Assembly: GCA_001829185.1 (NCBI GenBank) | Contig: MIAR01000007.1 | Span: forward strand, 1 to 34,252 | Reading direction: 5' to 3' | Length of the DNA: 34,252 bases | Origin: Spirochaetes bacterium GWB1_60_80 | GTDB taxonomy: Bacteria > Spirochaetota > Spirochaetia > Treponematales > UBA12059 | In this document: piece after piece, positions 131 to 25,328 of the stretch | Layout: each line of letters opens with the position of its first letter | Numbering within the stretch: the stretch's first letter is position 1 | Made by a program: the position numbers and the translations under genes | Notes under the pieces: generated by a model | Told to the model about the DNA's origin: nothing | Seen by the model: the letters and a program-made list of their open reading frames with translations, nothing else | The model's database searches: none

Positions 131-443
131 AGACGCGGAGAAGCATCTCGGTCTTGTTTATATTTTGCCCGTCCTTAGGGTAGACACGAAGTTCGAGCCC
201 CATGCCGATGCCTTCAAGGTAGTCGATAAGCGTAGATATTTTCATATCCTTTCGACGTTCGAGCTTAGAAACGGCCGTCTGGCTGAAGGCAGCGATATCT
301 GTTTGCCTGATACCACGGCGTTCACGGAGTTCAGCGAGCCGGATAGCCAGAATCTCACGCTCAGCCACGGCCCGAGCGTGATGAATCTGTTCGGAAGTCA
401 GCAAGGCTTCCATAGCCTTAACCGCGTTATTGACGATAGCCAT
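129..443 (-). CDS. higA: HigA-like XRE-family antitoxin
   Basis: This 104-aa protein has a Cro/C1-type helix-turn-helix at about residues 38-75, with ELRERRGIRQTDIA followed by the recognition-helix signature SQTAVSKLERR. It matches the antitoxins that follow HigB/Gp49-type toxins, which bind the toxin and repress their own promoter. The ATG at 443 is preceded at good spacing by AAGGAGG, and that ribosome site overlaps the stop codon of the upstream toxin gene, so the two are probably translationally coupled. Gene order is toxin first, antitoxin second, as is usual for higBA. The antitoxin frame is intact while the toxin frame is broken (see the adjoining pseudogene), which would leave a solitary DNA-binding antitoxin. 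The family call rests on motif and context. Confidence 0.85.
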   Translation of the reverse strand: MAIVNNAVKAMEALLTSEQIHHARAVAEREILAIRLAELRERRGIRQTDIAAFSQTAVSKLERRKDMKISTLIDYLEGIGMGLELRVYPKDGQNINKTEMLLRV

Positions 444-454
444 AAAGAACCTCC

Positions 455-793
455 TTAAGGTCGATAGCGCTTGATAAGCGCCTCGGCTGTTTGAATAAGC
501 CGCTCATAAAAATCTTTCTCGTTTTTCCCCTTCTTGTCGCCTCCGACCAGAAGAAGAGCCTGACGTTTCTCGTCGAAAAAGTAGAGCACACGCAGAACAT
601 GAGACTGGGTACGAGCCCGAAGTTCCTTGAGATTTTTAACGGAACAACCTTTTAGTGTATCAGCGTGCGGCCGACCAAGCTGGGGACCGAATTCTTCAAG
701 GAGCAAGACCTTCGAAAGGAGTGCGCCTTGAGAATCGGGGTCTTGAGAGCGGAACTATTCAAGGTACTCATCGGTTGCTGCTACATCCCACAT
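455..793 (-). pseudogene. higB: HigB / phage Gp49-like toxin with in-frame TAG at codon 13
   Basis: The frame from the ATG at 793 reads MWDVAATDEYLE, then TAG (757-755), then FRSQDPDSQGALLSKV and on to a normal HigB end with FGPQLGRPHADTLKG, NLKELRAR, RVLYFF and LLLVGGDKKGKNEKDFYERLI. Disregarding the stop, the product is 112 aa, the usual length for this RelE/ParE-fold ribosome-dependent mRNA interferase family. The stop falls where related toxins commonly have Trp (E-W-F), so a TGG-to-TAG change is the simple explanation. An 83-aa product could start at a TTG at 706, but it would lack the first helix and has no convincing ribosome site. A consensus promoter ends six bases before the ATG, which supports that start. 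Alternatives are a sequencing error or amber suppression. Confidence 0.8.
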
Positions 794-1038: not shown

Positions 1039-1192
1039 TGCAAACCCGCTTCCAGACGCTTTGCTGACCGGATTATTGATTCTGTCTCTGGCTATTGGTC
1101 TATGAAAACCGGATGCAACTTGCGTCCGCGGTTTTTTGGCGGATAACAAGCCAGAAGGCCCTTAGCCGGAGCGTTCCTTGTTAGGAACGCTC
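1039..1192 (-). repeat. Dispersed ~155-bp repeat, copy A, ending in a hairpin
   Basis: This segment is similar, with scattered differences and small gaps, to 4442-4599. Shared landmarks in the same order are TGCAAACC, GATTCTGT, GGTTTTTTGG, AAGCC(A/G)GAAGGCC, CTTAGC and the hairpin GAGCGTTCC-TTGTTA-GGAACGCTC. The hairpin (1169-1177 pairing with 1184-1192) overlaps the stop codon of the orphan tip gene. It has no T-run, so it is not a typical intrinsic terminator. Both copies lie just downstream of a tip-region gene on the minus strand. Confidence 0.75.
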
Positions 1193-2696
1193 AGTAGACA
1201 AAAGCCCCTGAAGAGAGCTGTGCAGCGGCAAATCGTAGTTCTAGAGAATCACCATCTTCTCCTACAAGCCGGTTCCTAGTAGGATCATAGAGTAAATAAT
1301 CTTCACTCGATTCATAATTCCCTAGTACTTGTGCAAATTGATTATAATCTCCTTTTAATGCATTTTCGTATGCAGCTATTTCATCCATATAGCGTCCGCT
1401 CAGCTGGTCAAAGCCATAGGTGTTACCCAGCCCCATGGCGGTCTGGATGTGCCCCACTATAGCGTTATTGGTTTCCTGGCGCTGGCCGTCGGCGCCGTTG
1501 TTGACGCCATCGCGGTAGGCTTCGTGAGCCAACAGGATGTTGAGGCCAAAGCGGCTGCCGTCACCCAGGGCATGGCTACCCAGGGTTATGGTACTGTAAC
1601 CATTGGCCCCGGCTTGGGTAAGGGCGCCGTAGTCGGCATTCGCGTTTTCCAGCACGTCGGTCCTGCCCGACAGGATGCGTTCATACAGCGCGCGCTCCTG
1701 GCTGCCGCCGCCGGCTGAGTACAGGCTGCGCAGGGCGCTGGCGTAGCGGCCGGCTTCCTGCTGGCCGGAGAGGGCCATGCCGATGTTCACGCCCCAGGTC
1801 TCGAGGCCCTTGAAGGACTTGAGGAGATTACTCAGGTTGGCGTCCGCGCCGCCCATGCCGATGCGGCTGCTAATGCCGTTACGGCCGAAGCTCAGTTCCA
1901 AGAGGCCGCCATTGAGGGCGCCGCCTGAAAGGTTGCTGGCATTCAAGAGGTTCAGGGTAAAGTCGCCGCCGGCGGCGTAGTTCACGGCTTGGCCGGCCAG
2001 GCCGCCCACCAGGTTGGACAGGGCGGTGCCGTTGCCGTACAGGTTGCCGTGAAAGCCTTCCAGGCCCAGGTTAAGGGCCCCGCCCACGAACGTACTGGCC
2101 ATGCCGCTAGCCATACTGATCAACCCGCCTTGAACGCCTTGGCCGAAGGCATCGCCCGACCAGCTGATGCCTTGGCCGTCCCACTGGAAGGCGTTGATGG
2201 CGCTACTTGCCAGGCTGGTGGTCATGGTTTGCATGCCGCCCAGTACGGTCTTGCCAATGACGCTACCGATGCCGCTTGTGGGCAGGCCGCTGGCCAGGCC
2301 TTTCATGCTGCCAAAGAGGCCGCCCATCTCGGTGGAGCCGGGGACGGCCGAGAAGCCGTTGAAGGCGCCGCCGATGGCCAGGTTGACGGCAGCGCTGGCT
2401 ACTTTCTTGCCAAAGTCCAGGCCGACTTCTTCCCACTTCTTGTAGCCGCTGGTGCCGTCCAACAGGCCGAAGATGGCGTCGTCGACAAGGCCGACGCCGG
2501 CGCCCAGGAGCGCGCCGCCGATGCCGCCCAGGGGCGCGGTGAGGGCGGTGGCGGCGATGGTCACGCCGATGTCCACCAGGCCTTTGATGGTCGGGGCCTG
2601 GAACCAGCTGCCGCGGCTGTCCCAGTAGGGGGAGCAACATATACAAAAGCTGGCTGCGTCGGACTGGCTCCGCGTGGCAGGTTTTTGTGCGCTCAA
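1191..2696 (-). CDS. Orphan C-terminal tip module of the giant exported protein
   Basis: This 501-aa protein has a unique 24-residue start. Residues 25-205 then match residues 3052-3232 of the 3890-aa protein at 5637-17309, with 13 substitutions, 11 of them within residues 111-138. Diverged similarity continues for about 80 residues (LNASNLSGGALNGG, ELSFGRNG, IGMGG). The tail is different, with HEAYRDG at 391-397 followed by QRQETNNAIVGH. The last ~70 codons are visibly AT-richer. There is no signal peptide and no long helical part. The TTG start at 2696 has GGGGAGGA about seven bases upstream and a promoter at 2733-2761, so it may be expressed. It resembles displaced tip cassettes of CDI/Rhs loci. 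The biochemical role is unknown. Confidence 0.75.
   Translation of the reverse strand: MSAQKPATRSQSDAASFCICCSPYWDSRGSWFQAPTIKGLVDIGVTIAATALTAPLGGIGGALLGAGVGLVDDAIFGLLDGTSGYKKWEEVGLDFGKKVASAAVNLAIGGAFNGFSAVPGSTEMGGLFGSMKGLASGLPTSGIGSVIGKTVLGGMQTMTTSLASSAINAFQWDGQGISWSGDAFGQGVQGGLISMASGMASTFVGGALNLGLEGFHGNLYGNGTALSNLVGGLAGQAVNYAAGGDFTLNLLNASNLSGGALNGGLLELSFGRNGISSRIGMGGADANLSNLLKSFKGLETWGVNIGMALSGQQEAGRYASALRSLYSAGGGSQERALYERILSGRTDVLENANADYGALTQAGANGYSTITLGSHALGDGSRFGLNILLAHEAYRDGVNNGADGQRQETNNAIVGHIQTAMGLGNTYGFDQLSGRYMDEIAAYENALKGDYNQFAQVLGNYESSEDYLLYDPTRNRLVGEDGDSLELRFAAAQLSSGAFVY
2080..2624 (-). repeat. 545-bp direct repeat shared with the giant gene, copy 1
   Basis: This segment aligns to 7612-8156 at a constant offset of 5532 bp at both ends, so there are no net gaps. 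It encodes the glycine-rich hydrophobic segment beginning WDSRGSWFQAP and ending SGMASTFVGG. The match stops abruptly at the TGGGAC trinucleotide pair at the upstream end and fades into diverged homology at the other. The offset is a multiple of three and both copies are read in the same frame. Confidence 0.9.
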
Positions 2697-2732
2697 GGGC
2701 TGTCCTCCCCGGCAATTGGCTTGTTCATGGAC

Positions 2733-2761
2733 ATTATAGCCGCGGGGCCTGGCGTTTTCAA
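2733..2761 (-). promoter_or_regulatory. Consensus-like promoter of the orphan tip gene
   Basis: The -35 box TTGAAA (2756-2761) and a perfect -10 box TATAAT (2733-2738) are 17 bp apart. Transcription would begin near 2726, about 30 bases before the TTG start, and the leader contains GGGGAGGA. A tiny 11-codon frame (ATG at 2728, MNKPIAGEDSP) ends in a TGA overlapping that TTG, which could couple translation. The -35 box overlaps the end of the palindrome at 2759-2792. Confidence 0.65.
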
Positions 2762-2792
2762 GTATGGCCAGCTTATCGCTTGGCCATACTTG
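2759..2792. repeat. 12-bp perfect inverted repeat abutting the orphan promoter
   Basis: CAAGTATGGCCA (2759-2770) and TGGCCATACTTG (2781-2792) are exact complements separated by ten bases. The arm nearest the gene overlaps the -35 box. It could be an operator, a cruciform or recombination site, or a transposon relic. Nothing in the window identifies a binding protein. Confidence 0.6.
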
Positions 2793-3099
2793 GTCACGCC
2801 ACCCGCGCGGCTACTTGTCCTTGCATAAGCAGGTACCAGGTTTGGAGGTACACACGCCGTAGCTGGCAGTGTTCGCCACACCGAGCCAGCCCGCCGCTGC
2901 CTGGTTTCCTGGTACAGGTTGCTCCTGGTTGGCTAACGGCTCCCCCTCGGCCAGGCTTCCGGCGCCGCCTTTGGGCTGCTAGCCTGGCGGTCTTGCGGTG
3001 CAAGCCCGCCACTGTTGGGCGGCCAGAGCGGCGCCGGCGATCCTGGCCTACCCCCACTTTTGGTAATCGGATTGGCAGCCAAGGCGTTTCATGATAATC

Positions 3100-4408
3100 T
3101 GTGACAATTATGTCAAACAGCCGATTGGCGTACCATACAGATTTCAAGCTGGCGTTGCAGTGTGGCCTAATGCCGGCCACGCAGGTGGCGCGCTTGCCGC
3201 GCTCCACGCGCCACCGTTTCAGGACGACTGATTACTCTGGTGTGGTCGGCGCGGAATATTCCACGCTGCTCGCTCAGATCGATGTGTTGAAGCAGATCGC
3301 AGCCTCGCGTGTTCTGCTCGGTTTTTGCCGCGCCTTCTTGCGGGTAGCATCCTTGCTGCGTAGTCTGGCTGTCAATCCTTTCCAACTGAAGCGGCTCAAA
3401 AATGTGGAACAGCGCGCGGCAATTGCCCATCGTTTGGTCAGCGCTGGGCAATTCGCACCGCTGGGTTCGTTATTGGCTTGCCTGGGCTTGTCCTACCGCA
3501 CGCTACGATCCTGGTTGGCATACAAGGTGCCCTGCGCTTCCTCGCCACTTACACTGTGCCGGGCGCGCAGTCCGGCCCAGCTCAGCCTGGCGGAAGTGCA
3601 AGTGGTTAAGCAGGCGTTCCGAGACCAAGCGACAGCACACTGGCCGCTGTCTGCGGTGGCCTGGCATTTGGTACATAGCGGTCGGTTGTCGGCCAGTGTG
3701 GCCACCATCATCAAGTATGCCAAGCTGCTGGGTGTGGCGGCGGGACACAGTGCAAGGAAACGTTCACGAAAACGCGGTAGTGTCGTAGCCAAGGCGCCCA
3801 ATACGGTTTGGCATGTGGATGCCACGATGGTACGCACGCTGGATGGTGTCAAGGTCGGTGTCCAGTTTATACTCGACAATTTCTCGCGCAAGCTGCTAGC
3901 CTGGACGGTTATCGCGCGGTTGTCCGGCGCGGCCACCGTTCAGCTAGTGCGTTCTGCCTGGGAGGCAATGCCAGAACAGCCGGCTACGCCGGTCGCCTTG
4001 ATCAGCGATGGCGGAAGCGAGAACGTCAACCAGACAGTAGCCGGCTATCTAGCCACCGTGCCGCTACATCTCTTGGTAGCTCAGACCGATGTGTCGTTCT
4101 CCAACTCGATGATCGAGGCCGCGAACAAGATTATAAAGTATCGTTATATTTTCAACCGAACCATACCTGACCTAGCGCATCTAGAGGAAGTAATCGGCGC
4201 GGCTGTCAAGGATTACAACAACCGGCCGCACTGCGCTTTGCGTGGCCTGACGCCAGAGCAGGTCTACGCTGGCAAGGTCTTCGATACGGCTGCGTACCGG
4301 GAGCAGCTGCACCAAGCTCGAGAGCTTCGCCTGGCCAGCAACCGGGGTCATTGTCCGTCGTGTGTGCCGTTGGTGGATGAAACAGCAGCCGAGGTAGCAG
4401 TCAGCTAA
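3100..4408 (+). mobile_element. IS element remnant with DD(35)E transposase, left end only
   Basis: The left boundary is probably TGTGACAATTATGTCAAACA at 3100, a TG-starting end with an internal TGAC/GTCA dyad just before the transposase start. No complementary sequence is visible between the transposase stop and about 4720. Repeat copy B begins only ~35 bp after the stop. The right end therefore appears lost, or is too diverged to see, and no target-site duplication can be defined. Confidence 0.6.
3110..4408 (+). CDS. DDE transposase, retroviral-integrase (rve) type
   Basis: This 432-aa protein starts from the ATG at 3110. The GTG at 3101 lies inside the presumed IS end, and neither start has a clear ribosome site. 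Catalytic residues are D237 (WHVDAT), D300 (ISDGGSEN) and E336 (SNSMIEAANKIIKY). The last two are separated by 35 residues, the classic DD(35)E spacing of IS3/IS481 transposases and retroviral integrases. The N-terminal ~200 residues contain basic helix-turn-helix-like segments (LLACLGLSYRTLRSWL), and the C-terminal part has the usual NRPHCALRGLTPEQVYAG motif. It is the only plus-strand gene in the window. Because the right IS end is not visible, it may be immobile even though the catalytic triad is intact. The family within the superfamily is not certain. Confidence 0.88.
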   Translation: MSNSRLAYHTDFKLALQCGLMPATQVARLPRSTRHRFRTTDYSGVVGAEYSTLLAQIDVLKQIAASRVLLGFCRAFLRVASLLRSLAVNPFQLKRLKNVEQRAAIAHRLVSAGQFAPLGSLLACLGLSYRTLRSWLAYKVPCASSPLTLCRARSPAQLSLAEVQVVKQAFRDQATAHWPLSAVAWHLVHSGRLSASVATIIKYAKLLGVAAGHSARKRSRKRGSVVAKAPNTVWHVDATMVRTLDGVKVGVQFILDNFSRKLLAWTVIARLSGAATVQLVRSAWEAMPEQPATPVALISDGGSENVNQTVAGYLATVPLHLLVAQTDVSFSNSMIEAANKIIKYRYIFNRTIPDLAHLEEVIGAAVKDYNNRPHCALRGLTPEQVYAGKVFDTAAYREQLHQARELRLASNRGHCPSCVPLVDETAAEVAVS

Positions 4409-4711
4409 AGTTTCTGGGCAGGAAAGTAGTCTGGAGCCAAGTGCAAACCGGCTTCAGGATGGTTTATGGCTGGGTTGCCGATTCTGTTTCTGGTTTTTTG
4501 GTCAGGGAAAGCCAGCTGCTACTTGTGTCCGTGGTTTTTTGGAGTTTATCAAGCCGGAAGGCCACCCTTAGCAGGAGCGTTCCTTGTTAGGAACGCTCCG
4601 TGGTCGAAACGTGGGGAATGGAGCTGAGCTGATTACTCAAGCATAAAAAGTTTTTTATTCAACCTAGTTATCTAAGTTTTACACACCATGGACAACCCTT
4701 AAAACACCTTG
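4409..4711. other. Intergenic stretch between transposase and AT-rich lipoprotein gene
   Basis: This stretch holds repeat copy B (4442-4599) with its 10-bp hairpin and an AT-rich ~110-bp segment. The sequence CCTTGTTAGGAAC appears at 4707-4719, overlapping the stop codon of the 4712-5626 gene, and again inside the hairpin (4582-4594). It also occurs in copy A (1176-1188). No gene is evident. Confidence 0.6.
4442..4599 (-). repeat. Dispersed ~155-bp repeat, copy B, ending in a hairpin
   Basis: This is the counterpart of 1039-1192. The terminal hairpin is a perfect 10-bp stem, GGAGCGTTCC (4574-4583) and GGAACGCTCC (4590-4599), around the loop TTGTTA. The transposase sits immediately beside it on the left, roughly where similarity to copy A ends. 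That suggests insertion or recombination at the repeat edge. Confidence 0.75.
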
Positions 4712-5626
4712 TTAGGAACCATCTGTAGTTGGAATGTGTTGATTTAAGTCTGGAATAGTAAATGGTATTGGCAACGAATAATATCTTTGAAATAGTCTGT
4801 TCAGAATCGATTGATCGCGCAGATATCGTATGCTAAAAAATGCTCCTTCTTCCACACGCAGAGCAATCCCTGTATTAGTAATGAAATTATTAACTATTTC
4901 ACCAACATTGGTACCCTTAGCATACGTGCATACTACGACATCCATATAATCGCTTGAATTAAGCAAAAACCAATGCAAATCAGCAATCAGAAAATCAGTG
5001 CTTACCATTGTGCCATCGTTATAGTATTCAGTCGTATCTGGATAGTAATTAGCTATTATGGTATTACGACTTGATTCAATATAAGAATCAAGCCAAAACA
5101 GCTGAGCGATCATCAAAACAAGAGTATCCATAGTATTAGTATTATTTAAAAATTCATTGAATTTCATAAAATAAATATAAATAGAATTATAATGTTGGTT
5201 ATCTAAATCTTCACTTGCTCCAAATCCATCATTTCCATGAAGTTTTAGAAATAAATATAAATATAATTTATTAAACAAATCTACATTATGCCCTAATCTA
5301 TAATCACAATAACCATCTAATAACATCATACCACTAATCCAATTCCTTGCTATATCTCTATCCACTTCATCAGTCAAACCTCTGTATAAACCAGTAATAT
5401 TATTGATTCTTATCGCTATTAAACTCTGTGCCTCAATAAATTCATTTTCCCATATTTTGCTAAAAACTTCATTAAAGGTATCATCTAGTTCAAGTAGTCT
5501 GAAATAATATCTACCATTTTCATAATGCTCATAAAATTCTCCCAATTCATTTTTCAATGAGAATTGAGATTGCGCACATGAAAAAAAAGGTAATAGTAAA
5601 AGTAAACAAATAACAAAAACCTTCAT
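4712..5626 (-). CDS. AT-rich exported protein, candidate immunity partner of the giant protein
   Basis: I do not recognise the family. The 304-aa product starts with a signal peptide, MKVFVICLLLLLPFFSCAQ, whose FFSC could be a loose spirochaetal lipobox (C17). The rest is mixed helix with many Asp, Asn and Tyr residues (for example YRLGHNVDLFNKLYLYLFLK) and no obvious catalytic motif. Its ribosome site AGGAG overlaps the TAG stop of the giant gene, and the start lies 10 bp after that stop, so it is translationally coupled to it. Base composition is far more AT-rich than the body of the giant gene, as is usual for toxin-immunity ends acquired by transfer. An exported immunity protein would fit a toxin acting in the periplasm. 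That role is inference; a chaperone or unrelated lipoprotein is possible. Confidence 0.7.
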   Translation of the reverse strand: MKVFVICLLLLLPFFSCAQSQFSLKNELGEFYEHYENGRYYFRLLELDDTFNEVFSKIWENEFIEAQSLIAIRINNITGLYRGLTDEVDRDIARNWISGMMLLDGYCDYRLGHNVDLFNKLYLYLFLKLHGNDGFGASEDLDNQHYNSIYIYFMKFNEFLNNTNTMDTLVLMIAQLFWLDSYIESSRNTIIANYYPDTTEYYNDGTMVSTDFLIADLHWFLLNSSDYMDVVVCTYAKGTNVGEIVNNFITNTGIALRVEEGAFFSIRYLRDQSILNRLFQRYYSLPIPFTIPDLNQHIPTTDGS

Positions 5627-5636: not shown

Positions 5637-8600
5637 CTAGTACCTTAATGTACCATTCCGCCAAGTCCAAGAACGCAAGGAATGCTGAAATCTGTTTGAC
5701 AAACCAACGTATGGATAATAAATTTCATTAGAAAAATTGATATTAGTAGTAGTGTATCCATGCATTTCAAACGAATTGTTTCTCCATAGGTTGCCTTGAT
5801 CTACAGTCGTTTCAAACCTTTCATATACATGGCTATCATGTGCTGTAAGATTGAAAATCTGCCTCAGCATTGGATTTCCAGAAGTGAATCCACCAGAGTA
5901 CCCATCGCGTTCAATTAACGCATTAACACTAGTTGCGGATGCCCCCATCGGGGAACGGCCTCTTTGAAAAGTAAGCCAGGACCTCAACCCAGCGTCTAAA
6001 TTGCCAACATTATTCTGGAAGAAGTCCGCTGCAGCTTGGAAACTGCCCATCTCCTCGGCCAACCTCCTGGCTTGGTAATCTTGCATCATCCCCCAAGTCT
6101 GGCCAGCTGCTTCTTCTGCTCGTACCGACGCATCAGACTCATCACAAGCGCTCCAAACTTTTCCAGCCAGGCTGAATCCGGCAATAGCCGCTTCATAATC
6201 AGCCCTAAAAATTCCAATCACGCCCGCTATCTGATTCGCGGTGACTTGTCCCCCCACAAGCCTTGAGCCAATCTCTGCTGCACCATCCCACATCATATCC
6301 AGTAGATACTCGTCCGGCTGCGTCAACTCGAGACTAAAATCACTTCCTACGCTTACTGGCAATCCACCTGGTCCCAGCGGTAATCCCAAACTATCTGCTG
6401 CATAGCCAAGGCCTTCGCCAGCGGCATAGGTCAAGTAGGCGGGCATCATTGCCCTGAGTGCTGCTCCGGTAGCCTGCTGTAATGCTGGTAGCAAGCCGCC
6501 AGTTAGCTGGCGCCTATCGATTCCAGCTTCCCGAAGAAGTGCAGTATACTGTCTATCAAGCAAAGCACTTTCAGCTAGGAAGGCCTCTGCGACACCGCGC
6601 GTTTGAGCTAGTGCTTGCAGGGCCTGAGAACGGAAACCAGCCTCCATTCCCAACCGAGCTGACTCGCCTCCGGCAAAATCTGACAACTCGCCATCGCGAA
6701 TTGCTCCACCAGAGGCGTAGAGCTCCCGCACTGATTCGCTACCCATAATTTTTATTTTATTGGCAACGTCACTGCCATAGCGCTCGGTAACCCAGGCCTC
6801 TTGCTCTGCGGATAAGGTTCGCCGTGCAAAATTTCTTCCCGCCACCGCAGCTAGTAATCCTTGATTATCAAGCCGACCCAGTGTTGCATCCCTGCCATGA
6901 GCAGTATAATAAGAAGCCATTTCACCTATACCCGATATTAGACCTTCACCAGTGATATTGAAAGCGCTCTGCAAATCAGCGAAGCTGGAAAACTCCCTAA
7001 TATATGCATCACCCTCGCCCAATCCGCTTAAATGGTCATCTTCATGCGCCATAAAAGCCGCTAATTGCGCGGCAGATTCCAAGCCCTCGCCCATCAAGCG
7101 GGTATCCAGTTGGATTCGTCCACCTTCGGTCGTGGCAAGTCCACCTGATAATTCTACAAAATCCACGCCTTGTCGGCCACCAAATATCCGCTTGCCCAAA
7201 TCCCAATTCGCTTCATTCCCGGTATAACCCAGCATGTTTATACCATTGAATATTTGACGCTGCCCGGCATCTCCATATTTCATGCGGGCAATATTAATGC
7301 TCTCCATTAATCCGCCAAGACTACTGGCTATGGTTCCCAAACTTACATTGGTGCCTCCCATGCCAATTTGCCCACCCGAGAATCCGTTCTTCCCGAAGCT
7401 TAGCTCAAAAAGGCCACCGCTCAGGGCTCCACCCGTTAAATCCGAAGCATTCAGAACATTGAAAGTAGCGTTACCGGTTAAAGCATAGGTTACGCCAGCT
7501 CCGGCCAACCCACCCATCAAGCCATTAAAGGCACTAATGTTTTGGGTGTTAAAAATGTTCGACGACAATGAAACGGCATTGCCATCATACAAGTTAGCCA
7601 GCCCCAGGCTACCGCCCACGAACGTACTGGCCATGCCGCTAGCCATGCTGATCAAGCCGCCCTGGACGCCCTGGCCGAAGGCATCGCCCGACCAGCTGAT
7701 GCCTTGTCCGTCCCACTGGAAGGCGTTGATGGCGCTGTTAGCCAAGCTAGTGGTCATGGTTTGCATGCCGCCCAACATAGTCTTGCCGATAACGCTACCA
7801 ATGCCGCTTGTCGGCAGGCTGCTAGCCAGGCCTTCCACTTTGCCGAAGAGCTTGCCGACGGCGTCCGAGCCGGGGGCGGCGGCGAAGCCGTTGAAGACGC
7901 CGCCGATGGCCAGGTTGACAGCAGCGCTGGCTACTTTCTTGCCAAAGTCCAGGCCGACTTCTTCCCACTTCTTGTAGCCGCTGGTGCCATCGAGGAGGCC
8001 GAAGATGGCGTCGTCGACCAGGCCGACGCCGGCGCCTAGGAGCGCGCCGCCGATGCCGCCCAGGGGCGCGGTGAGGGCGGTGGCGGCGATGGTCACGCCG
8101 ATGTCCACCAGGCCTTTGATGGTCGGGGCCTGGAACCAGCTGCCGCGGCTGTCCCACAGGGCTTTGTCGTAGACTGGCTTGTTGGCTTCGGTGTAGCCGC
8201 GGCCTTCCTGCATGCTCCAGTAGATGTACTCGGCCATCAGGCGGCCCAGTTCGCCTTTGCCGAGGCTGGCGGCTTCAAAGATGCCATCCTGGCCTTCGTC
8301 CAGGTTGGGTTGCAGCTTGACGATGGGAGCGGCGCCGATGTAGTTACCGAACAGGCCGGGGCTGATTGTCTGGCTGGCCTTTTGGTCAGCTTCCAATGCG
8401 GTAGTTTCTGTTGTCCAGACCCGTGGGGTATAGGTGTATTCGTTGCCCTCTTCGTCGTAACGGGTTTCCGGTATGCCATCAACCAGGACGGGTTTTTCAT
8501 AGGTGCTGCGAATCAAGGTACTAACGCTTTTTTCGTCCTTCTTGCCAAAGAGTACTTCCTGGGCGGCTTCGACTTCGTCTTGCACGGCCAGCATGAGGGC

Positions 8601-11600
8601 CTGGATGGCGTCGGCGTCGAGGGTCTGTAGGTTACTTTCCGACAGGTCGGTCTGGATCTCCACCGGGGCGGGGGCAAAGGGGTTGTAGCGGCGGACGCTG
8701 GCGGCTTGGGTGATGTATTTTTCCTGAACGGTGGAATGTACCACGACTTCTTTGGTGTAGTAGCCACCGGAGATGTTCCAGTAGCCGTCGCCTTGCCAGG
8801 TGGCGTCCATCGAGTCGCTGAAGTTCTGGTTGGCGCCGGCCACGGCACTGTCGATGCTGCCGATGATTTGGGCCAGTTGCTCGCGGGCTTGGGCGGCCAT
8901 GATGCGGGCCTGGCGGGCGGCCAGTTCCTGGTTGGCGCTGCGTACGAAGCTGCTGGCGGCTACCTGGATGGTAGCGGCGTCCCAGGCGGAGGGGCCGCCC
9001 AGGCCGGTGCGGACGCTGCTCGCGGCGGTGTTGGCGCTGCCGCTTTGGGCACTCAAGGCGCTGCTCAGGCTGGTTATGCCGGTAGCGTTGAGGGCTTCCT
9101 CCAGGAGGTTGGCGGAGCTATTCTCCAGCTGCAGTTCCGGGATGATGTCCAGTTCGGCCGCGCGTCCGGCGCTGGCGGCGGCGTCGCCTAGGAGGGCCAG
9201 GTGGACGTCGCTGGCGGCGGTGTTGGCGGCCAGGGTGGCTTGTTCTACCCAGCCCATTTTGTCGGTCTGCAGGGTCAGCCAAGAGTCGGACCACAGGAAG
9301 GCGTAGCGGTCGTATTCTGCCTGGTAGCGGTTCTGCCAGGCTTGCCAGCCTTCTTGCAGGCGGCTGTAGCCGGCGTCGAAGTCGGTCAGGCCGCGTTCCA
9401 GGATCAGGCTGGCCGCGTCCTGCCAGGCTGCGGTCTTGTGCTCGAGGTCGGTCTGCAGTATGCGCCATTCGTATTGGCGGGCTTGCAGTTCGGCGTTGTT
9501 GCGGGCGTTGGCAATGCGGTGAATCAAGGTCTGGTAGGAGGAGATGTCGCCGAGGGCTTCACTTTCCAGGCTGGGTGTTTCGGTAAAGAGGTAGGTCTGG
9601 TAATGGTTACCAAGGCGGCGCAGGTGGGTGCGGTAGGAGGCGCTGGCTGGTCCGAAGGCTTTGGCGGCGGCTGCGGCTAACTGCTCGTCGGTCGCCTCTC
9701 CCAGCAGGTACTGGTTGTAGACGGTCTGGTAGGCAGCGGCGGCGGTTTGTTGGTCGCCGGCTTGGCTGGCAAAGTGTTCTTCCAGGGCTTGCTGGCTCTT
9801 GTCGGTTTGGTTGCGGCTCCAGTTGAGCATGCGGCTAATCAGGGTGGTGGCGTCGCCAGCCTTGACTTGTTCATTGACGGGGCCGGTGTCGCCGTCGGGT
9901 TGGCGGAAGCGTTGGTAGAGGGTTCCGAGGTCGGTCATTTCTTCGGCGCTCAGGGCGCCGGTGGTGGCCATGGCGGTCTGCAGGGTGGCGAGGCTGACTT
10001 CGGCGGTACTGGTGGCGCCGCTGCCTTTCAGTTTGGCCAGGGTGGCGGTGGTGGCGGTATAGGCATCGAGGTTGGTTTTGACGTTTGTACCTTGGAAAGC
10101 GGCTGTATTTCTGGCGTTCTGGCTGAAGCTATTGTTAAATCTGGTGGGATTGTCGGCGGAGTCTGCGCTTATATAATTATTGTTGAGTAACTGGATCGCG
10201 GCACTAGTTTCACTCATTTTATACATTATATAAGCATTGTTAATGAATTCAGCCGCATAGAGCCAACCCATGACAGGGTTGAGGAAAGTCAAGCCAAAAT
10301 AGAGCAGCATCCGTCCGGTGCTCAATCCATGGCCGATAGAAAGCTGCCGCTGTGATTCCTGCAATCTTTGTTTGGCGAATTCGAATTCTTTTTCAATCAG
10401 GCTTTTTTGAAAAACGGCTTTCAGGTTTCCGTTTTTGCCATTTTCCATGCTGAACAGGAGCATTTCCAGGTCAGCCCGTTCTTCTTCCGACAGGTCGTTC
10501 CAGGCTTTTTCCATTTCAGTTTTCAGGGTGGTATTGTGATATTCGGTAACGGCGGTACTGAGTTGGGAGGCTACGCCATCGAATAAATGAATTTGGAGGC
10601 CGAGGGCATTGTAGAGTAATTGTTTTCCTAAACTATCGGCCAGTGGATTAGAGTCTACGCCTCCGAGCATGTTGTTGAAGGCTTCAAGGTTTGTTTTTTC
10701 GGCTTCTGAAGCGGTTCCTGGTATGCCCTTTTGGAACTGGCCAATCAGGTAGGCGCGGGCCAGGGCTAGTCTTTGGAATTTGGTTTTGTCTGTCAGCCAG
10801 CCGGCGATGCGCTGGTTCCAGGCGCTCAGTTCCTGTTCGTAGGTGGAGCTTGTCTGGCTTTGGCCGGTTATCGTTTTGTCAAGCGCGAAATGGGCTGCCA
10901 GGTCCTGGCTGGTAGTAGCATTGATGGCTTTCAGGTCACCGCCGTTAAAATTGATGCGCAGGCGGCCATCTTTGATATACAGGTAGTTGTTTATGCTATT
11001 AGGGCCAAAGTTGGCGGTTTCAAAGTCTGTACCGGTATATTCATCTATTCGTTTAGTCTTCAAAAATTCTACGCCGTTCTTATACAATTGGTCGTGCCAG
11101 GCCGTGTAGGCTTGGGTGTTGCGGCGTTCGGCTTCGGCGACGGCGGCGGATAGGGCGGTTTGGGCTTTGGCGGCCAGCAGTTTTTCCTGGTAATTTTGTT
11201 GGTAGGCCAGGTAGAGCCGGTTGTAATCGGGGTCGTTGTACTCTAATTGTGTAACGGTGGCATTCAGGTTGGTCAGCGCGGCCGTGGCCAGGTTGGCTCT
11301 GGTTTGCATCAGCCGGCAGAAGTCCAATTCGTCGCTCGGTGTGCGCCAAGCGCCGGGTGCGCTGGCGTCGGGTACGGTGGCGCTGGCGTCGGTATTGGCG
11401 GCGGCCAGGTAGGCGGTGGCGGCCCAGCGTTTGATGGCGTCGCGGGTTTCATAGGCGGTGCGGGCGGTTTCCAGGCTATCCCAGCTGGTTTTTACCACGT
11501 CGTACTGGGCGTCATAGTCGGCGCCGGCGCTGGCGAAGCCGGTAGCGGCGGTCTGGTAGAGGGCTAGTTTTTCGTCATACTGGGTTTGCTGGTCTTGGAT

Positions 11601-14600
11601 GGTTTGTTTCAGGATGGCTAATTGTTGCACGATTGCGGTACGATCCTGGCTCAACTCATAGCTGGCGCCGCGGCTGGCGATCTCGGCCATCAGGCGCTGG
11701 CGTTGTTGCTCGATAGTCTGCAGGCGCGCTCCGACCGCCTGGAAGGCTTCCTCCAGGGTATAGTTGGTTTCTGGCAGGTCGCTGGCCACGAAGACTTTGG
11801 TCGGATCATCCAGCCAGGCCTGGACGAGGGTCGCGAAATCGCCATATCTCTGGTAGTGGAAGCCAGCCGCTACTTGATTCACTGGATCCGGATTACCTTT
11901 TTGCCAATCCTCGCTCAGGTTAGACCAGCGTTCAAGGGCCAACTGGAGCTGGCCCTGCAGGCGCTCCTGGTACTGCCAGGCGTCGGTAAGCAGGCCGGCC
12001 CGCCGGTCGGCTACCCGGGTGCGCAGGGCGTCGGCGCTTTCCAGGTCGGTGGCCAGGCCGCTCACCAAGTCGGTGCCGGTAATGATGTCGGCTACCAGGT
12101 ACTCGCGCCAATGTTTCAGGTCGGCGGCTTCATTGGCCGTTTCCCGCTGGCTCCACTCCTGCCAGGTTCTGGCCACGCCAAGTAGGCCGTGTTGACGGTT
12201 GGCCGTTTGGAACAGGGCTTCGGCCCGGGCCACCAGGCTTTGGGTCAGCACTTGAAGAATTGGGTCAGCCGGGCCGCCGGCCGAGGCGCCGCCGTCCAGC
12301 AGGCGCAGGATGGCGACGGCTTGCTGGGCATCGTCGGCGTTGCGCGCCATCGCCCAGGCGCCGCGCTCACCGGACAATTCGCCGATATATAGCTGGCTCA
12401 GGCTCAGCTGGCGGCGCTGTTCTAAGGTGGCGCTAAAGCGAGTTATATCTAGACCGGAAGCCTGCGCTTCGGCCGTGAGGGCGTTTAGCTGGCTATCGGT
12501 GGCTGCAAATATAAGCGGCTCATAAAGCAAATATAACAAGTCTTGCTTGAATTCGTGGCTGGCGTTGGCCGTCAGGCTGGCGCGGATCAGCTCGCCAACA
12601 TTAGCATTACCGAATTGCGCCATGCCCAGCGTGGCCTGTGCGGGCAGGAAGGCCTCTAACACCTGTTGCGTCAGGTCGGCCGTCAAGCCCAGGTTGGCCA
12701 GGCGGAGCGCCAGGCCGCTTTCCATATAGGCCGCAAAGGCTCCCGTTTGTTCAAACTCCGCCCGGATTTCATCCATCGCGCTTTTGCCAATGGCTAGGGT
12801 ACTCTCAAAATCAGCCGCGGCCTTGGCACGCAAGGCGGCCACGTGTTCAGTCAAGATCGCGTCCGTTGGCCAATCGTCTATGGCTCCCTGCAGCCAGGCG
12901 GCGGTCATAGCCAGACCGGCCGGCGACTGCCCGTCCAGTAAGGTCAAAAAATCCGAGGTATAATTACCTTCAGCGTCTAACGTCACCAGAGCGCTAAGCG
13001 CGGCCTTAAAGTCGGCAGCTGTGGCATCGGCCGCCAGTCGACCCACGATGGTATTGAGAATTCCCGGCAGTATATCCAGCGCTACCAAATCCGCTAGAGG
13101 CAGGCGACCCAAGTACTGATTATAGTAATCCGGCGCCAGGAGCTCCATGTAGCCGCCGAGCACCACCAAACGGTTTTCCTGGTTAATAACGTCTTCCGGC
13201 TTTTGGCTGGTGTCCAGGGCGTAATCCAGCTGGACTTTTCGTACCACGTTCTCGACGGCTAGAGCCAGGTGGGTGTCGGCGGCGCTGTAGTTCAGGCCAT
13301 ATTGGCTGTGCAGCAAGGCTTCCAAATCAACCTGGACGTTGGCCCAATTTGGCTGGCCGGCGTTAAAATCCGGCTTGATATAGCCCGCAAACAGGCCGGC
13401 GCTCAGTTTTTCTACCAGCAAGTCGCCAAGTACGGCCTGGACGGAGGCGCTCAGGCCCAGGTTGTTAGGCTGTGTAAGCTGGTAAAGGCTGGTAATGAGT
13501 TCATATTGGTTGTCGCCCTGCAGCGTATTCAAGAGATCCTGTAATTGGCTCAGCGTGGTTTGGTTTGCTTCCAGGCTGTTTGTCAGGCTGGCTATATCGG
13601 TCGGGCTGTCGACGTTGGCTTGCCAGGCTTTGGCCATCACATACTGGTTCAAGCCTTGTTGCCATTGCCCTAACTGGCGTGCTACAAACTCCGGCGCGGC
13701 CTGGGCGGCCTCGGCCACGGCCTGGTTGATCCGTTGCAGGCCGGCCTGCCAGTCGTTTCCAGCCACTACCAGGCTGTCGCCGATGGTTTTGATGGCCGGC
13801 AACTCGGTGCTGTCCGGACTGTTGGTCACTTCATTGAGGCAGCTTTGCAGGACGGCCATACTGGCTGCATAGCGCTCGTCATTCAAGGCGGCGCTATAAG
13901 AACCATACATCGCCACCACGAACTGCCGATTGCGGGTAGCCTCAAGTCGCGTCGCCGTTTCGGCTGTCAACAGGCCAAGCACATCTTGCCCGGCCACGAT
14001 AAATGGCGTATTGCCAAGCAGGAATTGGCGCACTTGGCTATTGCCGGCCGCCAAGGCTTCCAGCTCGGTTCCGGTAGCGGCCAGGCTCAGCTCCTGGGCC
14101 AGAATTTCCGTTATCTGTTGCAGCGTGGTTAACCAAGCCTGGGCCGAGTCCGCTGTCCCGCGCCACAGTGTCGTCAACCACTGGCCATTGGCCGAGAGTG
14201 GTTCAGCGCTGGCTGGGTTGGCCAGTTTAGTGAAGGCTTCCAAGGCCAGGCCGACCCGCTCCCGCAAGAGTTGGGCTTGATAACCTTCCGCTTCGGCCGT
14301 CAGGCTGGCGGCGACGCTCAGGCCAGCCATCAACTCGTTGGCGGTTACGGCTTCGTACCAGGCACCGGCATCGGTCGCGCATAATAGTTTCAGGCCGGCT
14401 TGGCGGGACTCCAGGCTGGTGGTGGCTTGAGCCAGCGCTTTACCCAGGGTTAGATGAATCAAGCGCTGATAGCGGCTACTTAGCTCTTCTAAGGCGGCTT
14501 CTTTCTGGGCCGCGGCATCAGAGCCCGTGAAAACCCGGTTGCTTATAACCTGGAACTCGGCATCATAGGCGCTCAAGCAGGCTTGAATGCTCTGATACGG

Positions 14601-17309
14601 CGCGGCCTCTTTCAAGGTGTCATACTGGGTAAGCAGCAGGGCGATATCGGTCGGTTCTTTTTCGGCCAGGAAACCGGCCAGCAGGGTTTGCTGGTCGGAC
14701 AAGGCTTTCAGCGAAGGCTGATTGTCGTCGCCCTGGATCAAGCCCTGTAATTGGCCGGCGGCCGTGGCCACGAATTGGTCATGGTGGTAGGCCGCCGCCG
14801 CCGCCAGATAGGTGGCCATCAGTTCGCTTTCGGTGGTCGCCTCGGCATCGGCGCGCGGCCCTAAACCATGCAAGGCCAACAAATCGCAATAGCGGTCTTC
14901 CACCGCCTGGCGTAAAAATTCATTGCTGTTCAGCAGCATGACCGCTACCAGGTCGGCGTACTGGCGGTTCAGGGTCTCCAGTTGGGTACCGGCCGCCGTC
15001 AAAGCCTGGCGAGCGGCTGTGATGGCCTCTTGGCTGCTGCCGATAGCGGCGCCTAAAGCCGTCAGTTGCGCGGCGGCGAGTTGGTACTGCGACAGAGCCT
15101 CGTCATAGGCGGTTTTACTTTCCGCCCACAGCCGGGCGGTATCGGCTTCCGTCTCCCGCCCGGCGCTCTGGTCGGTGGCATACTCGTACACGGCCGTGGC
15201 GATGGCCAGCCGTTTGGTCCAGTAATTCTCGACCGACCTGACACGCAGGAGCTCCAACTGATATTCATCCAGGAAGAAATCCTCGCTGCTGGCCGTCGGA
15301 TTCAGGACATCCACCAAGAGCGGCGCGCCGCTGCCTTCGGCGCCCAACAGTAAATCAAACTCCTGAATCAGCTTGGTCCGCGCCTCGATAGCGTGTTGTT
15401 CATACGTCTTGTATATAGCCTGCCACTTGACGGCCTCAAACATGGCTTCAAAGCCGTTGCGGCGCAGGGCATACTCCGGGCGCTCGGTCAGCTCTTTTAT
15501 AACCGGCAAAAACTCAGCCAGGTTGTTATAGGTCTTTGCTAATTTTTCCTCGAGAAACATCCACACTGGATTTGCCGCCTCGAATTGCTTTTTAGCGGCC
15601 AGCAAGGCAGCTTCCGCCTCGCCTTTTATGGCCACGGCTTGCTCGATCTCGGTTTCGAGCGCCGCCAAGGCTGTTTCCCTGTTCTCAAGTTCCGCCGGAA
15701 GCTCTTCTAATCTCTCTCTTTGCTCATCAGTAAGATTAGATTGTTCGATCGCATTCAAGGTATCGTATTCAGCCTGTAGATCCGCTTGTTCTTGCAGCAA
15801 GCCGGTCTTGGTTTCCTGCAAGCTGGTCAAACTGGCCGAAGAGGTATCATATTCGGCTTGCCTGGCGTCAACGGCGGCCCTGCTCTGCCGCCAGCCGCTT
15901 TCGCCTTCTAAGCGATCGCGTTCGGTACTGAGAAGAGCAAGCAAGGTAGTACAGGCGGCTTGTTCGAAGCCGGCGGCATCCTGGCTAATGTCCATCGCCA
16001 CAACGCCGGCTTGGGTAAGCCAATAACGCAGGCTATCCTTAGCGCTCAACATCATGCTGGCGCTTTGGGTGTAAACCTCCACCCAGGCCGCCGCCCGATT
16101 GGCAAAGGCCTCGGCCCGTTCTTCGCCGTCGCGCTGCATCTCGGTCTTGGCGGCCGTAATGCGCGCGCTCAGCTCCGCGCTGGCTTGCTCGAAGGCCGTC
16201 TCCCCGGTCTGGATCAGGGCCAGGGCTTTTTGCTGCCAGCTATCGCGTGCCTGGCTGATCTTCTGCAGCGCCGTCGCCCAGGCCTTGTTGCCTTCGCTCC
16301 ATAAATCGCCGGATTGCACTTCCCACTGCATGCGCCGGGCAATGAACTTCTCTTCGGTTTCTTCCCAGATTGACAAGCCGCGCTCGAACTGCGCCTGGAA
16401 TTGCTGCAGCCATTCCTCACCGGCCAGGGCCAGGTCGCCGCCACCATCCTGGGCGGCTTCAATCCGGGTCTGCAAGGCCAGCAGCGCCTGGTCACAGGTA
16501 TAACTTGTCTGATTGGCCAGCTCTGTGGCGATAACGTCGGCCGTCTCGCCTTCGCTCTGGCGGCGCAGACTCCAGATATCGTTGGTGCGCCGGGCAATAA
16601 ACAAGCGCTCTTCCTGCCTGGCCACCACATCCAGCTCGCGTTGCAGCCGTTCGCCGGCCGTCTGCTTCAAGCCTGCCAGAAGATCATTAAAACGGGTATC
16701 ATTACTGCCAGTCAAATACGACAGCAAGGCCGCGGCCTTGGTCTGGACAAAAGCCATAAAATTATCAACCAGGCTAACCGCGCCATCGTTGATCATGGTA
16801 CGCCATTCGGCCCGGTCGCTTTCCAGGTTGGCGTTCTGGTCTGGCCGTATGAACATGGCATCGCCCGCTGCATCATACAGGATATTGCCGTCGGCGTCGG
16901 TCTGATACAAATACTGGCGGTTAGCCTCCCCGACCTGCTCCTGCATCAGCTGGCGCAGTCTGGCGGCCTCGTTGCCAAAAAAGCGTTCGTTCAGCCAGCG
17001 GCTATAACGCGCCCCCACGGCCTCATCCAACCAGGTAGACAAGCCCTGGCGGGCACTCGCCAATTCGGCGGGATCCGCGTACCAGGCCAGCGCGTCGATT
17101 TCCCAGGCCGCGCGCACCGCCGTCAGGCCGTTTTGCACCTCGGCCAGCCAGCGTTCGGCGTCATTCTCCCGGTCTGCCCGCTGGAAGCTGAATTCCAGGG
17201 CCGAGGTATCCACATGTTGACTATTGAATTGATCCTGGGCAAAGCCTGTCGCCGTCATGACTACCGCCAGAAGCACAACTATCGCCCACACTTTTTGTCT
17301 GTTCAACAT
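5637..17309 (-). CDS. Giant (3890-aa) exported protein with HExxH-bearing variable C-terminus
   Basis: The product resembles the very long uncharacterised proteins of Leptospira and related spirochaetes. Its function is not known. A Sec signal peptide (cleavage after GFA24) is followed by about 2300 residues of Ala/Gln/Glu/Trp-rich helical and coiled-coil sequence, and a hydrophobic stretch near 2330-2365 (MLLYFGLTFLNPVMGWLYAA). After more helix comes a conserved block starting at WDSRGSWF (3052) with a glycine-rich hydrophobic segment at about 3065-3095. H3422-E-D-D-H3426 followed by LSGLGEGDAYIREF is a plausible zincin site. Another ~460 residues follow, the last ~100 in AT-richer DNA. The start has AAGGA seven bases upstream. 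The layout (long exported stalk, conserved junction block, variable tip, coupled small gene, spare tip downstream) suggests a polymorphic-toxin or surface effector. A purely structural surface role cannot be excluded. Confidence 0.85.
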   Translation of the reverse strand: MLNRQKVWAIVVLLAVVMTATGFAQDQFNSQHVDTSALEFSFQRADRENDAERWLAEVQNGLTAVRAAWEIDALAWYADPAELASARQGLSTWLDEAVGARYSRWLNERFFGNEAARLRQLMQEQVGEANRQYLYQTDADGNILYDAAGDAMFIRPDQNANLESDRAEWRTMINDGAVSLVDNFMAFVQTKAAALLSYLTGSNDTRFNDLLAGLKQTAGERLQRELDVVARQEERLFIARRTNDIWSLRRQSEGETADVIATELANQTSYTCDQALLALQTRIEAAQDGGGDLALAGEEWLQQFQAQFERGLSIWEETEEKFIARRMQWEVQSGDLWSEGNKAWATALQKISQARDSWQQKALALIQTGETAFEQASAELSARITAAKTEMQRDGEERAEAFANRAAAWVEVYTQSASMMLSAKDSLRYWLTQAGVVAMDISQDAAGFEQAACTTLLALLSTERDRLEGESGWRQSRAAVDARQAEYDTSSASLTSLQETKTGLLQEQADLQAEYDTLNAIEQSNLTDEQRERLEELPAELENRETALAALETEIEQAVAIKGEAEAALLAAKKQFEAANPVWMFLEEKLAKTYNNLAEFLPVIKELTERPEYALRRNGFEAMFEAVKWQAIYKTYEQHAIEARTKLIQEFDLLLGAEGSGAPLLVDVLNPTASSEDFFLDEYQLELLRVRSVENYWTKRLAIATAVYEYATDQSAGRETEADTARLWAESKTAYDEALSQYQLAAAQLTALGAAIGSSQEAITAARQALTAAGTQLETLNRQYADLVAVMLLNSNEFLRQAVEDRYCDLLALHGLGPRADAEATTESELMATYLAAAAAYHHDQFVATAAGQLQGLIQGDDNQPSLKALSDQQTLLAGFLAEKEPTDIALLLTQYDTLKEAAPYQSIQACLSAYDAEFQVISNRVFTGSDAAAQKEAALEELSSRYQRLIHLTLGKALAQATTSLESRQAGLKLLCATDAGAWYEAVTANELMAGLSVAASLTAEAEGYQAQLLRERVGLALEAFTKLANPASAEPLSANGQWLTTLWRGTADSAQAWLTTLQQITEILAQELSLAATGTELEALAAGNSQVRQFLLGNTPFIVAGQDVLGLLTAETATRLEATRNRQFVVAMYGSYSAALNDERYAASMAVLQSCLNEVTNSPDSTELPAIKTIGDSLVVAGNDWQAGLQRINQAVAEAAQAAPEFVARQLGQWQQGLNQYVMAKAWQANVDSPTDIASLTNSLEANQTTLSQLQDLLNTLQGDNQYELITSLYQLTQPNNLGLSASVQAVLGDLLVEKLSAGLFAGYIKPDFNAGQPNWANVQVDLEALLHSQYGLNYSAADTHLALAVENVVRKVQLDYALDTSQKPEDVINQENRLVVLGGYMELLAPDYYNQYLGRLPLADLVALDILPGILNTIVGRLAADATAADFKAALSALVTLDAEGNYTSDFLTLLDGQSPAGLAMTAAWLQGAIDDWPTDAILTEHVAALRAKAAADFESTLAIGKSAMDEIRAEFEQTGAFAAYMESGLALRLANLGLTADLTQQVLEAFLPAQATLGMAQFGNANVGELIRASLTANASHEFKQDLLYLLYEPLIFAATDSQLNALTAEAQASGLDITRFSATLEQRRQLSLSQLYIGELSGERGAWAMARNADDAQQAVAILRLLDGGASAGGPADPILQVLTQSLVARAEALFQTANRQHGLLGVARTWQEWSQRETANEAADLKHWREYLVADIITGTDLVSGLATDLESADALRTRVADRRAGLLTDAWQYQERLQGQLQLALERWSNLSEDWQKGNPDPVNQVAAGFHYQRYGDFATLVQAWLDDPTKVFVASDLPETNYTLEEAFQAVGARLQTIEQQRQRLMAEIASRGASYELSQDRTAIVQQLAILKQTIQDQQTQYDEKLALYQTAATGFASAGADYDAQYDVVKTSWDSLETARTAYETRDAIKRWAATAYLAAANTDASATVPDASAPGAWRTPSDELDFCRLMQTRANLATAALTNLNATVTQLEYNDPDYNRLYLAYQQNYQEKLLAAKAQTALSAAVAEAERRNTQAYTAWHDQLYKNGVEFLKTKRIDEYTGTDFETANFGPNSINNYLYIKDGRLRINFNGGDLKAINATTSQDLAAHFALDKTITGQSQTSSTYEQELSAWNQRIAGWLTDKTKFQRLALARAYLIGQFQKGIPGTASEAEKTNLEAFNNMLGGVDSNPLADSLGKQLLYNALGLQIHLFDGVASQLSTAVTEYHNTTLKTEMEKAWNDLSEEERADLEMLLFSMENGKNGNLKAVFQKSLIEKEFEFAKQRLQESQRQLSIGHGLSTGRMLLYFGLTFLNPVMGWLYAAEFINNAYIMYKMSETSAAIQLLNNNYISADSADNPTRFNNSFSQNARNTAAFQGTNVKTNLDAYTATTATLAKLKGSGATSTAEVSLATLQTAMATTGALSAEEMTDLGTLYQRFRQPDGDTGPVNEQVKAGDATTLISRMLNWSRNQTDKSQQALEEHFASQAGDQQTAAAAYQTVYNQYLLGEATDEQLAAAAAKAFGPASASYRTHLRRLGNHYQTYLFTETPSLESEALGDISSYQTLIHRIANARNNAELQARQYEWRILQTDLEHKTAAWQDAASLILERGLTDFDAGYSRLQEGWQAWQNRYQAEYDRYAFLWSDSWLTLQTDKMGWVEQATLAANTAASDVHLALLGDAAASAGRAAELDIIPELQLENSSANLLEEALNATGITSLSSALSAQSGSANTAASSVRTGLGGPSAWDAATIQVAASSFVRSANQELAARQARIMAAQAREQLAQIIGSIDSAVAGANQNFSDSMDATWQGDGYWNISGGYYTKEVVVHSTVQEKYITQAASVRRYNPFAPAPVEIQTDLSESNLQTLDADAIQALMLAVQDEVEAAQEVLFGKKDEKSVSTLIRSTYEKPVLVDGIPETRYDEEGNEYTYTPRVWTTETTALEADQKASQTISPGLFGNYIGAAPIVKLQPNLDEGQDGIFEAASLGKGELGRLMAEYIYWSMQEGRGYTEANKPVYDKALWDSRGSWFQAPTIKGLVDIGVTIAATALTAPLGGIGGALLGAGVGLVDDAIFGLLDGTSGYKKWEEVGLDFGKKVASAAVNLAIGGVFNGFAAAPGSDAVGKLFGKVEGLASSLPTSGIGSVIGKTMLGGMQTMTTSLANSAINAFQWDGQGISWSGDAFGQGVQGGLISMASGMASTFVGGSLGLANLYDGNAVSLSSNIFNTQNISAFNGLMGGLAGAGVTYALTGNATFNVLNASDLTGGALSGGLFELSFGKNGFSGGQIGMGGTNVSLGTIASSLGGLMESINIARMKYGDAGQRQIFNGINMLGYTGNEANWDLGKRIFGGRQGVDFVELSGGLATTEGGRIQLDTRLMGEGLESAAQLAAFMAHEDDHLSGLGEGDAYIREFSSFADLQSAFNITGEGLISGIGEMASYYTAHGRDATLGRLDNQGLLAAVAGRNFARRTLSAEQEAWVTERYGSDVANKIKIMGSESVRELYASGGAIRDGELSDFAGGESARLGMEAGFRSQALQALAQTRGVAEAFLAESALLDRQYTALLREAGIDRRQLTGGLLPALQQATGAALRAMMPAYLTYAAGEGLGYAADSLGLPLGPGGLPVSVGSDFSLELTQPDEYLLDMMWDGAAEIGSRLVGGQVTANQIAGVIGIFRADYEAAIAGFSLAGKVWSACDESDASVRAEEAAGQTWGMMQDYQARRLAEEMGSFQAAADFFQNNVGNLDAGLRSWLTFQRGRSPMGASATSVNALIERDGYSGGFTSGNPMLRQIFNLTAHDSHVYERFETTVDQGNLWRNNSFEMHGYTTTNINFSNEIYYPYVGLSNRFQHSLRSWTWRNGTLRY
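7032..7046 (-). other. HEDDH zincin-like motif of the giant protein
   Basis: The codons for H3422, E3423 and H3426 lie here, in the context FMAHEDDHLSGLGEGDAY. The following Gly and Glu suit an HExxH...G...E metal site. In the orphan tip the roughly corresponding place reads LAHEAYRDG, where the second His is missing. Confidence 0.5.
7612..8156 (-). repeat. 545-bp direct repeat shared with the orphan tip gene, copy 2
   Basis: This is the in-gene counterpart of 2080-2624, encoding residues 3052-3232. Both copies have the same orientation and reading frame. Most nucleotide differences cluster around 7810-7900, coding for FNGFAAAPGSDAVGKLFGKVEG. That is what mosaic exchange between tip cassettes would leave behind. 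Confidence 0.9.
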
Positions 17310-19088: not shown

Positions 19089-19141
19089 TTGTTTCTCCTT
19101 TTCACCGTTTCGTCGATAGACGATAATAGTTTCCAGCCAGG

Positions 19142-25320: not shown

Positions 25321-25328
25321 GGCCGTAC

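What the first reader, a model, noticed from the sequence alone, without database searches (positions are those of the whole stretch)
1191..2761. Orphan tip has its own promoter, ribosome site and start
A displaced C-terminal cassette would normally be silent. Here TTGAAA-N17-TATAAT, a GGGGAGGA ribosome site and a TTG start lie directly before it, with a small upstream frame whose stop overlaps the start codon. The 501-aa product lacks a signal peptide and would stay in the cytoplasm. It might be a decoy, an immunity-like competitor, or simply a toxin fragment tolerated because its target is outside the cytoplasm.
Basis: partly seen in the sequence, partly recalled or inferred. Interest (0 to 1): 0.65.

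Follow-up and report, generated by a model that had tools for sequence, protein, structure and literature searches.

The report
Stalk remnant behind a dispersed repeat
The supposed free-standing toxin tip is a leftover piece of the conserved stalk of a giant secreted bacterial protein, cut at both ends by mobile DNA; its striking promoter lies in a scattered structured repeat, so it probably has no function of its own, although the same kind of repeat starts every comparable cassette in a distant relative.

Summary
The motifs are real. TTGAAA-N17-TATAAT (11/12) lies at 2761-2733(-), GGGGAGGA at 2710-2703 and TTG at 2696, opening a 501-codon frame. The reading changes in three ways. (1) The promoter lies in a dispersed, structured repeat (about 3064-2628). 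BLAST finds 46 matching pieces of this repeat in the genome. TTGAAA sits in the repeat's hairpin; most copies lack a -10, and only one other of about 25 listed copies reaches 11/12. (2) The frame is not a 'tip'. It holds the conserved stalk shared with the 3890-aa neighbour and relatives. It ends in a partial insertion-sequence end (1035 to about 1226), where relatives begin their 300-400-aa variable domain. It has no partner gene. (3) In a complete genome from another family, G031, six orphan cassettes sit next to a full-length gene. Each starts at a repeat of the same class, fused at three parent positions, and G031's only near-identical copies are in that array. The window's fusion is a fourth position. 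Best reading: a doubly truncated, probably non-functional orphan cassette with an incidental promoter. The unexpected lead is an unnamed structured repeat (spirochaetes, one Fibrobacter match) that marks cassette boundaries.

The parts
1191..2696 (-). orphan frame, 501 aa, TTG start; residues 25 to about 488 are the stalk region homologous to the neighbouring giant gene and relatives
2733..2761 (-). promoter-like site TTGAAA-N17-TATAAT (11/12), inside the dispersed repeat
2703..2710 (-). GGGGAGGA Shine-Dalgarno-like sequence, private to this copy (other copies read CGCCGTTG here)
2628..3064 (-). dispersed structured repeat, about 437 nt: left end ACCAAAAGTGGGGG, right end GCTCCCCC. Homology to other copies holds to 2719; 2718-2636 matches only in length; the terminal motif recurs at 2635-2628
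2938..3057 (-). conserved left hairpin of the repeat (GTGGGGGYAG...GAGGGGGAGCC), arms covary across genomes
2735..2815 (-). second hairpin of the repeat (loop GCGATAAGC); its 3' arm contains the TTGAAA
1035..1226 (.). partial second copy of the insertion sequence's right end, truncating the orphan; the last ~11 codons and the stop lie in it (1035-1203 = 4437-4609 at 77%; weaker match to 1226)
3065..4632 (+). insertion sequence with IS3/IS481-like transposase (ORF 3101-4408), between the partner gene and the repeat; ends approximate
5637..17309 (-). full-length 3890-aa secreted giant protein (parent)
4712..5626 (-). 304-aa ORF with signal peptide directly after the parent, presumed partner (immunity-like) gene
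   Evidence: same arrangement in G031

Best explanation
This is a degenerate orphan C-terminal cassette of an unnamed polymorphic giant-protein family. Shown: its 5' border is a dispersed, structured, non-coding repeat whose right terminus joins the parent-like coding sequence; its 3' end is cut by the right end of an insertion sequence, beyond which neither a variable effector domain nor a partner gene is left. Inferred: intact cassettes [repeat - 5'-truncated stalk - variable domain - partner] are reserves that recombine with the full-length gene through the shared stalk. For example, one crossover with a circular cassette would leave exactly this order, with each displaced old end starting at a repeat. 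Also inferred: the promoter, ribosome site and TTG arose in this divergent repeat copy by substitution (TGCAAC to TATAAT; CGCCGTTG region to GGGGAGGA). A transcript and a stalk fragment may be made, but with no effector domain, no partner and no export signal it most likely does nothing.
For: Own-genome BLAST: 33 hits to 3300-2600 and 46 hits to a complete repeat copy. Copy alignments: TTGAAA is in the hairpin arm of many copies, TATAAT only here and in the C32 copy. The fusion is at GCTCCCCCTAC|TGGGAC. The same right terminus is fused to stalk in six G031 orphans at parent positions 10176, 11278 and 12504 (positions in the fetched G031 region), and the only near-identical copies in that complete genome are in the array. 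The insertion-sequence right end at 1035-1203 matches 4437-4609 at 77%. Relatives' variable domains start where the orphan stops. Each G031 orphan has a small downstream ORF, most with an evident signal peptide; the window's orphan has none.
Against: The frame is still open over 501 codons and the parent-like part is conserved (dN 0.07, dS 0.34 over 202 codons); that may predate the truncation. The promoter plus ribosome-site combination is unlikely from base composition alone. Residues 1-23 lie in a stretch that does not align to other repeat copies better than shuffles (292/1000); only its length and terminus fit. Two G018 orphans have no such repeat.
Confidence: 0.7

Rival explanations
1. 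Exapted expression: the repeat copy gained a working promoter and ribosome site and the cell makes the stalk fragment for a use, such as a dominant-negative partner of the giant protein or a regulator of its export.
For: 11/12 promoter with optimal spacing, Shine-Dalgarno at 6 nt, open frame. A second repeat copy with TATAAT (C32) lies some 145 nt before an open frame on the same strand.
Against: No effector domain, no partner and no export signal; G031 orphans lack a promoter in their elements; the other genome of the genus has no orphan homologue.
Confidence: 0.13
2. Silent donor: the piece serves only as a recombination reservoir for the giant gene, as orphan CdiA-CT and Rhs cassettes do.
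For: First 40 codons 99% and next 40 codons 95% identical to the parent at the DNA level; arrays in G031; orphan cassettes in CDI/Rhs loci are proposed reservoirs (PMC3150448) and can fuse to the main gene (PMC3967940).
Against: There is no variable domain and no partner left to donate; a fusion would give a truncated giant protein.
Confidence: 0.12
3. Assembly or binning artefact: the junctions are false joins at repeats in a draft genome.
For: The genome is a 59-contig draft and the window is a whole contig.
Against: The same repeat-to-stalk junction type occurs six times in a one-contig genome; the junctions lie well inside the contig.
Confidence: 0.05

Closest known systems
Orphan cdiA-CT/cdiI and rhs-CT/rhsI modules (PMC3150448, PMC3967940)
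   Same: Displaced 3' fragments next to a full-length secreted polymorphic protein gene, with varying amounts of upstream homology, small partner genes, disruption by insertion sequences, and usually no translation start.
   Different: Unrelated giant protein (no Pfam or NCBIfam match); a structured repeat at the 5' border; this copy has promoter and ribosome-site motifs but has lost its variable domain and partner.
Polymorphic toxin cassettes in general (PMC3482391)
   Same: Constant gene body, variable C-terminal cassette, arrays of standalone cassettes with neighbouring immunity genes.
   Different: Toxicity and immunity not shown for this family; only one weak Peptidase_M23 match among the seven G031 C-termini scanned.
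GTAG-tagged REP repeats mobilised by Y1 (RAYT) transposases (PMC3733652, PMC2817692)
   Same: GTAG at the 5' foot of an imperfect hairpin, intergenic, dispersed.
   Different: About 330-440 nt rather than 20-40 nt, with two hairpins and C5/G5 tracts; no Y1 transposase found in the window's genome or in G031.
Insertion sequences or MITEs providing outward promoters (general knowledge; review PMC9330008, abstract only seen)
   Same: Mobile repeat placed before a gene fragment, with a promoter-like edge.
   Different: Most copies of this repeat lack the -10; no transposase is tied to it.

Membership tests
Orphan C-terminal module of a polymorphic secreted protein (CDI/Rhs-like arrangement) | 3' fragment of a longer secreted gene lying downstream of the full-length copy | tested here: met
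Orphan C-terminal module of a polymorphic secreted protein (CDI/Rhs-like arrangement) | carries its own variable C-terminal domain | tested here: not met
   cut by the insertion-sequence end at about 1226 where relatives begin 300-400 aa of variable domain
Orphan C-terminal module of a polymorphic secreted protein (CDI/Rhs-like arrangement) | followed by a partner/immunity gene | tested here: not met
   next features are insertion-sequence remains and a Gp49/HTH pair; present in G031 orphans
Orphan C-terminal module of a polymorphic secreted protein (CDI/Rhs-like arrangement) | toxin activity neutralised by the partner | not testable with these tools
   needs bench work
CdiA or Rhs protein family itself | Pfam/NCBIfam domains of those families in the parent or orphan | tested here: not met
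   no family at E<=0.1
REP/RAYT repeats | GTAG tag at the foot of a hairpin | tested here: met
   GTGGGGGTAG before covarying arms, 0/10000 permutations as stable
REP/RAYT repeats | Y1 (PF01797) transposase in the same genome | tested here: not met
   none in G000 or G031; present in G030, G065, G157
Known Rfam RNA family | match above gathering score | tested here: not met

The most novel reading that the evidence does not exclude
The structured repeat is an active cassette boundary: a mobile or recombination element that joins by its GCTCCCCC end at various points in giant-protein genes, lets stalk-effector-partner cassettes be captured, circularised and re-integrated, and now and then provides an expression signal that turns a silent cassette on.
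Probability: 0.2. Interest if true: 0.75.

Novelty: new variant of a known kind. Interest (0 to 1): 0.4.

Why it matters
Orphan toxin-like cassettes are known in enterobacterial CDI and Rhs loci, and how they come to lie where they do is poorly understood. Here every orphan in a complete relative's genome, and the one in this window, begins at the same class of structured repeat, with four different fusion points. That makes cassette capture testable. The window's own orphan is mainly a caution: a near-consensus promoter in front of an open frame can come from a scattered repeat and need not mark a working gene.

Tried and rejected
Rfam: no family; mir-1265 and gntR-DTE are far below their cut-offs. 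HEARO/omega-RNA was considered because ATGA follows the hairpin; no Rfam match, dropped. Integron attC was considered for the palindrome after the orphan; it proved to be the end of the insertion sequence. The REP/RAYT idea fails for lack of a Y1 transposase. Claim tested and weakened: I first took the whole 2718-2628 stretch as aligned to the repeat; a shuffle test did not support sequence homology there, so only its length and terminal motif are claimed.

Full report
Observation. By composition, a site of at least 11/12 is rare in this GC-rich stretch (0.002 per 700 nt on one strand) but not in the whole window (0.45 expected, 1 seen). An in-frame start with a Shine-Dalgarno arises in 3% of shuffles.

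What lies upstream. The 700 nt around the start has 33 matches in the organism's own genome, and a complete copy of the repeat has 46. Seven loci besides the window carry the repeat's right end and most are near full length, running from ACCAA..GTGGGGG to GTGCTCCCCC; many others are partial. The RNA fold of the window copy is 6.45 sd below shuffles. The promoter sits at the 3' arm of the second hairpin: TTGAAA is part of the arm in many copies, while the -10 position reads TGCAAC or similar in most. Of about 25 copies listed with this site, only the window's and one on C32 reach 11/12; the others reach at most 9. The ribosome site is private to this copy. The stretch 2718-2636, which holds the ribosome site, TTG and first codons, does not align to other copies better than shuffles, but it has the right length and ends in the repeat's terminal motif at 2635-2628, three bases before the parent homology at 2624.

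What lies downstream. DNA 1035-1203 is a 77% copy of 4437-4609, the right end of the insertion sequence between the parent's partner gene and the repeat; weaker similarity, shared with a third copy on C14, extends to about 1226. The orphan's last codons and stop lie in it. In G031 and other relatives the conserved stalk runs to the equivalent of residue 468-484 and is followed by about 340 or more further aa, mostly variable. So the window's orphan has stalk but almost none of the variable domain, and it lacks the small downstream gene that follows the parent (4712-5626) and each G031 orphan. G+C falls from about 0.63 to 0.36-0.48 near the end, where the variable domain would begin.

The wider pattern. 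14 of 39 genomes in the relatives search have homologues, the window's own included. G031 (another family, one contig) holds one full-length gene and six shorter cassettes in about 25 kb. A repeat of about 325 nt precedes each of the six and, at this similarity, occurs nowhere else in that genome except for one partial copy in the same array and one 23-nt match. It ends in GTGCTCCCCC and is fused to parent sequence at three positions; the window's fusion is a fourth. The repeat differs in sequence from the window's but shares GTGGGGGTAG, GAGGGGGAGCC and the terminus, with a hairpin between whose arms covary (own arms -31.4 kcal/mol, swapped arms -20.8; 0 of 10000 permutations as good). An exact pattern for the left part is found in 7 of 294 genomes of the order, with no hit to the reversed pattern. 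Among named genomes it is in Treponema sp. and other spirochaete MAGs, and a convincing short form is in a Fibrobacter succinogenes MAG; several other single hits look like chance. In those genomes it lies between unrelated genes. Two G018 orphans have no such repeat, so the association is frequent, not universal.

Mechanism. Shown: repeat-to-stalk fusion on the left, insertion-sequence truncation on the right. Inferred: cassettes bounded by the repeat recombine with the main gene through the stalk; one crossover with a circular cassette would place [partner - repeat - 5'-truncated old end] downstream, which is the order seen in G031. In the window the insertion sequence then eroded the cassette. 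The promoter is probably incidental: three transitions from the common repeat sequence make TATAAT. G031's orphans show no promoter-like site in their elements, so expression is not a conserved feature.

Comparison. Orphan cdiA-CT and rhs-CT modules behave similarly and generally lack translation starts (PMC3150448, PMC3967940); polymorphic toxins in general carry standalone cassettes with immunity genes (PMC3482391). The parent is in no Pfam or NCBIfam family. Its neighbours are efflux-type genes: two AcrB-like proteins, a HlyD-like protein, an outer-membrane efflux protein and an FGE-sulfatase-domain protein. The repeat has REP-like GTAG hairpins but no Y1 transposase in this genome, and no Rfam match.

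Verdict. A real motif set and a real displaced cassette, but a stalk remnant without its tip, probably without function. The more interesting lead is the structured repeat at the cassette border.

Noticed in passing
window 2628-3064 and loci L006, L007, L008, L010, L013, L112-L128, L133: An unnamed structured repeat family (GTGGGGGYAG-hairpin-GAGGGGGAGCC ... GCTCCCCC) in spirochaetes and at least one Fibrobacter MAG. Outside orphan arrays its right end often lies just past the 3' ends of unrelated genes on the opposite strand (they read like serS, aspS, eno, thrS; identified by eye only).
   Followed up: partly
L053-L054 (G031:C1:1183000-1222999): Array of one full-length giant gene and six orphan cassettes with small partner genes; a YhgA-like putative transposase (Transposase_31) gene lies beside one partial repeat in the array.
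   Followed up: partly
window 2943-3064 and C14 3340-3695 (L004): The IS3/IS481-like insertion sequence abuts the left end of the repeat in two places of the genome, as if it targets the repeat's end.
   Followed up: no
window 129-706 (-): Gp49-like (DUF891) and helix-turn-helix gene pair, a likely HigBA-type toxin-antitoxin module at the contig end.
   Followed up: no
L012 (C32, repeat at 1501-1593): A second repeat copy with TTGATA-N17-TATAAT lies some 145 nt before an open frame read on the same strand; a natural test of whether such copies act as promoters.
   Followed up: partly
window 17706-31177 (-): RND efflux-type gene cluster (two AcrB-like, HlyD-like, OEP) plus an FGE-sulfatase-domain protein upstream of the giant gene; in G031 a ~1010-aa membrane-transporter-like ORF (by eye only) also precedes the giant gene.
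   Followed up: no
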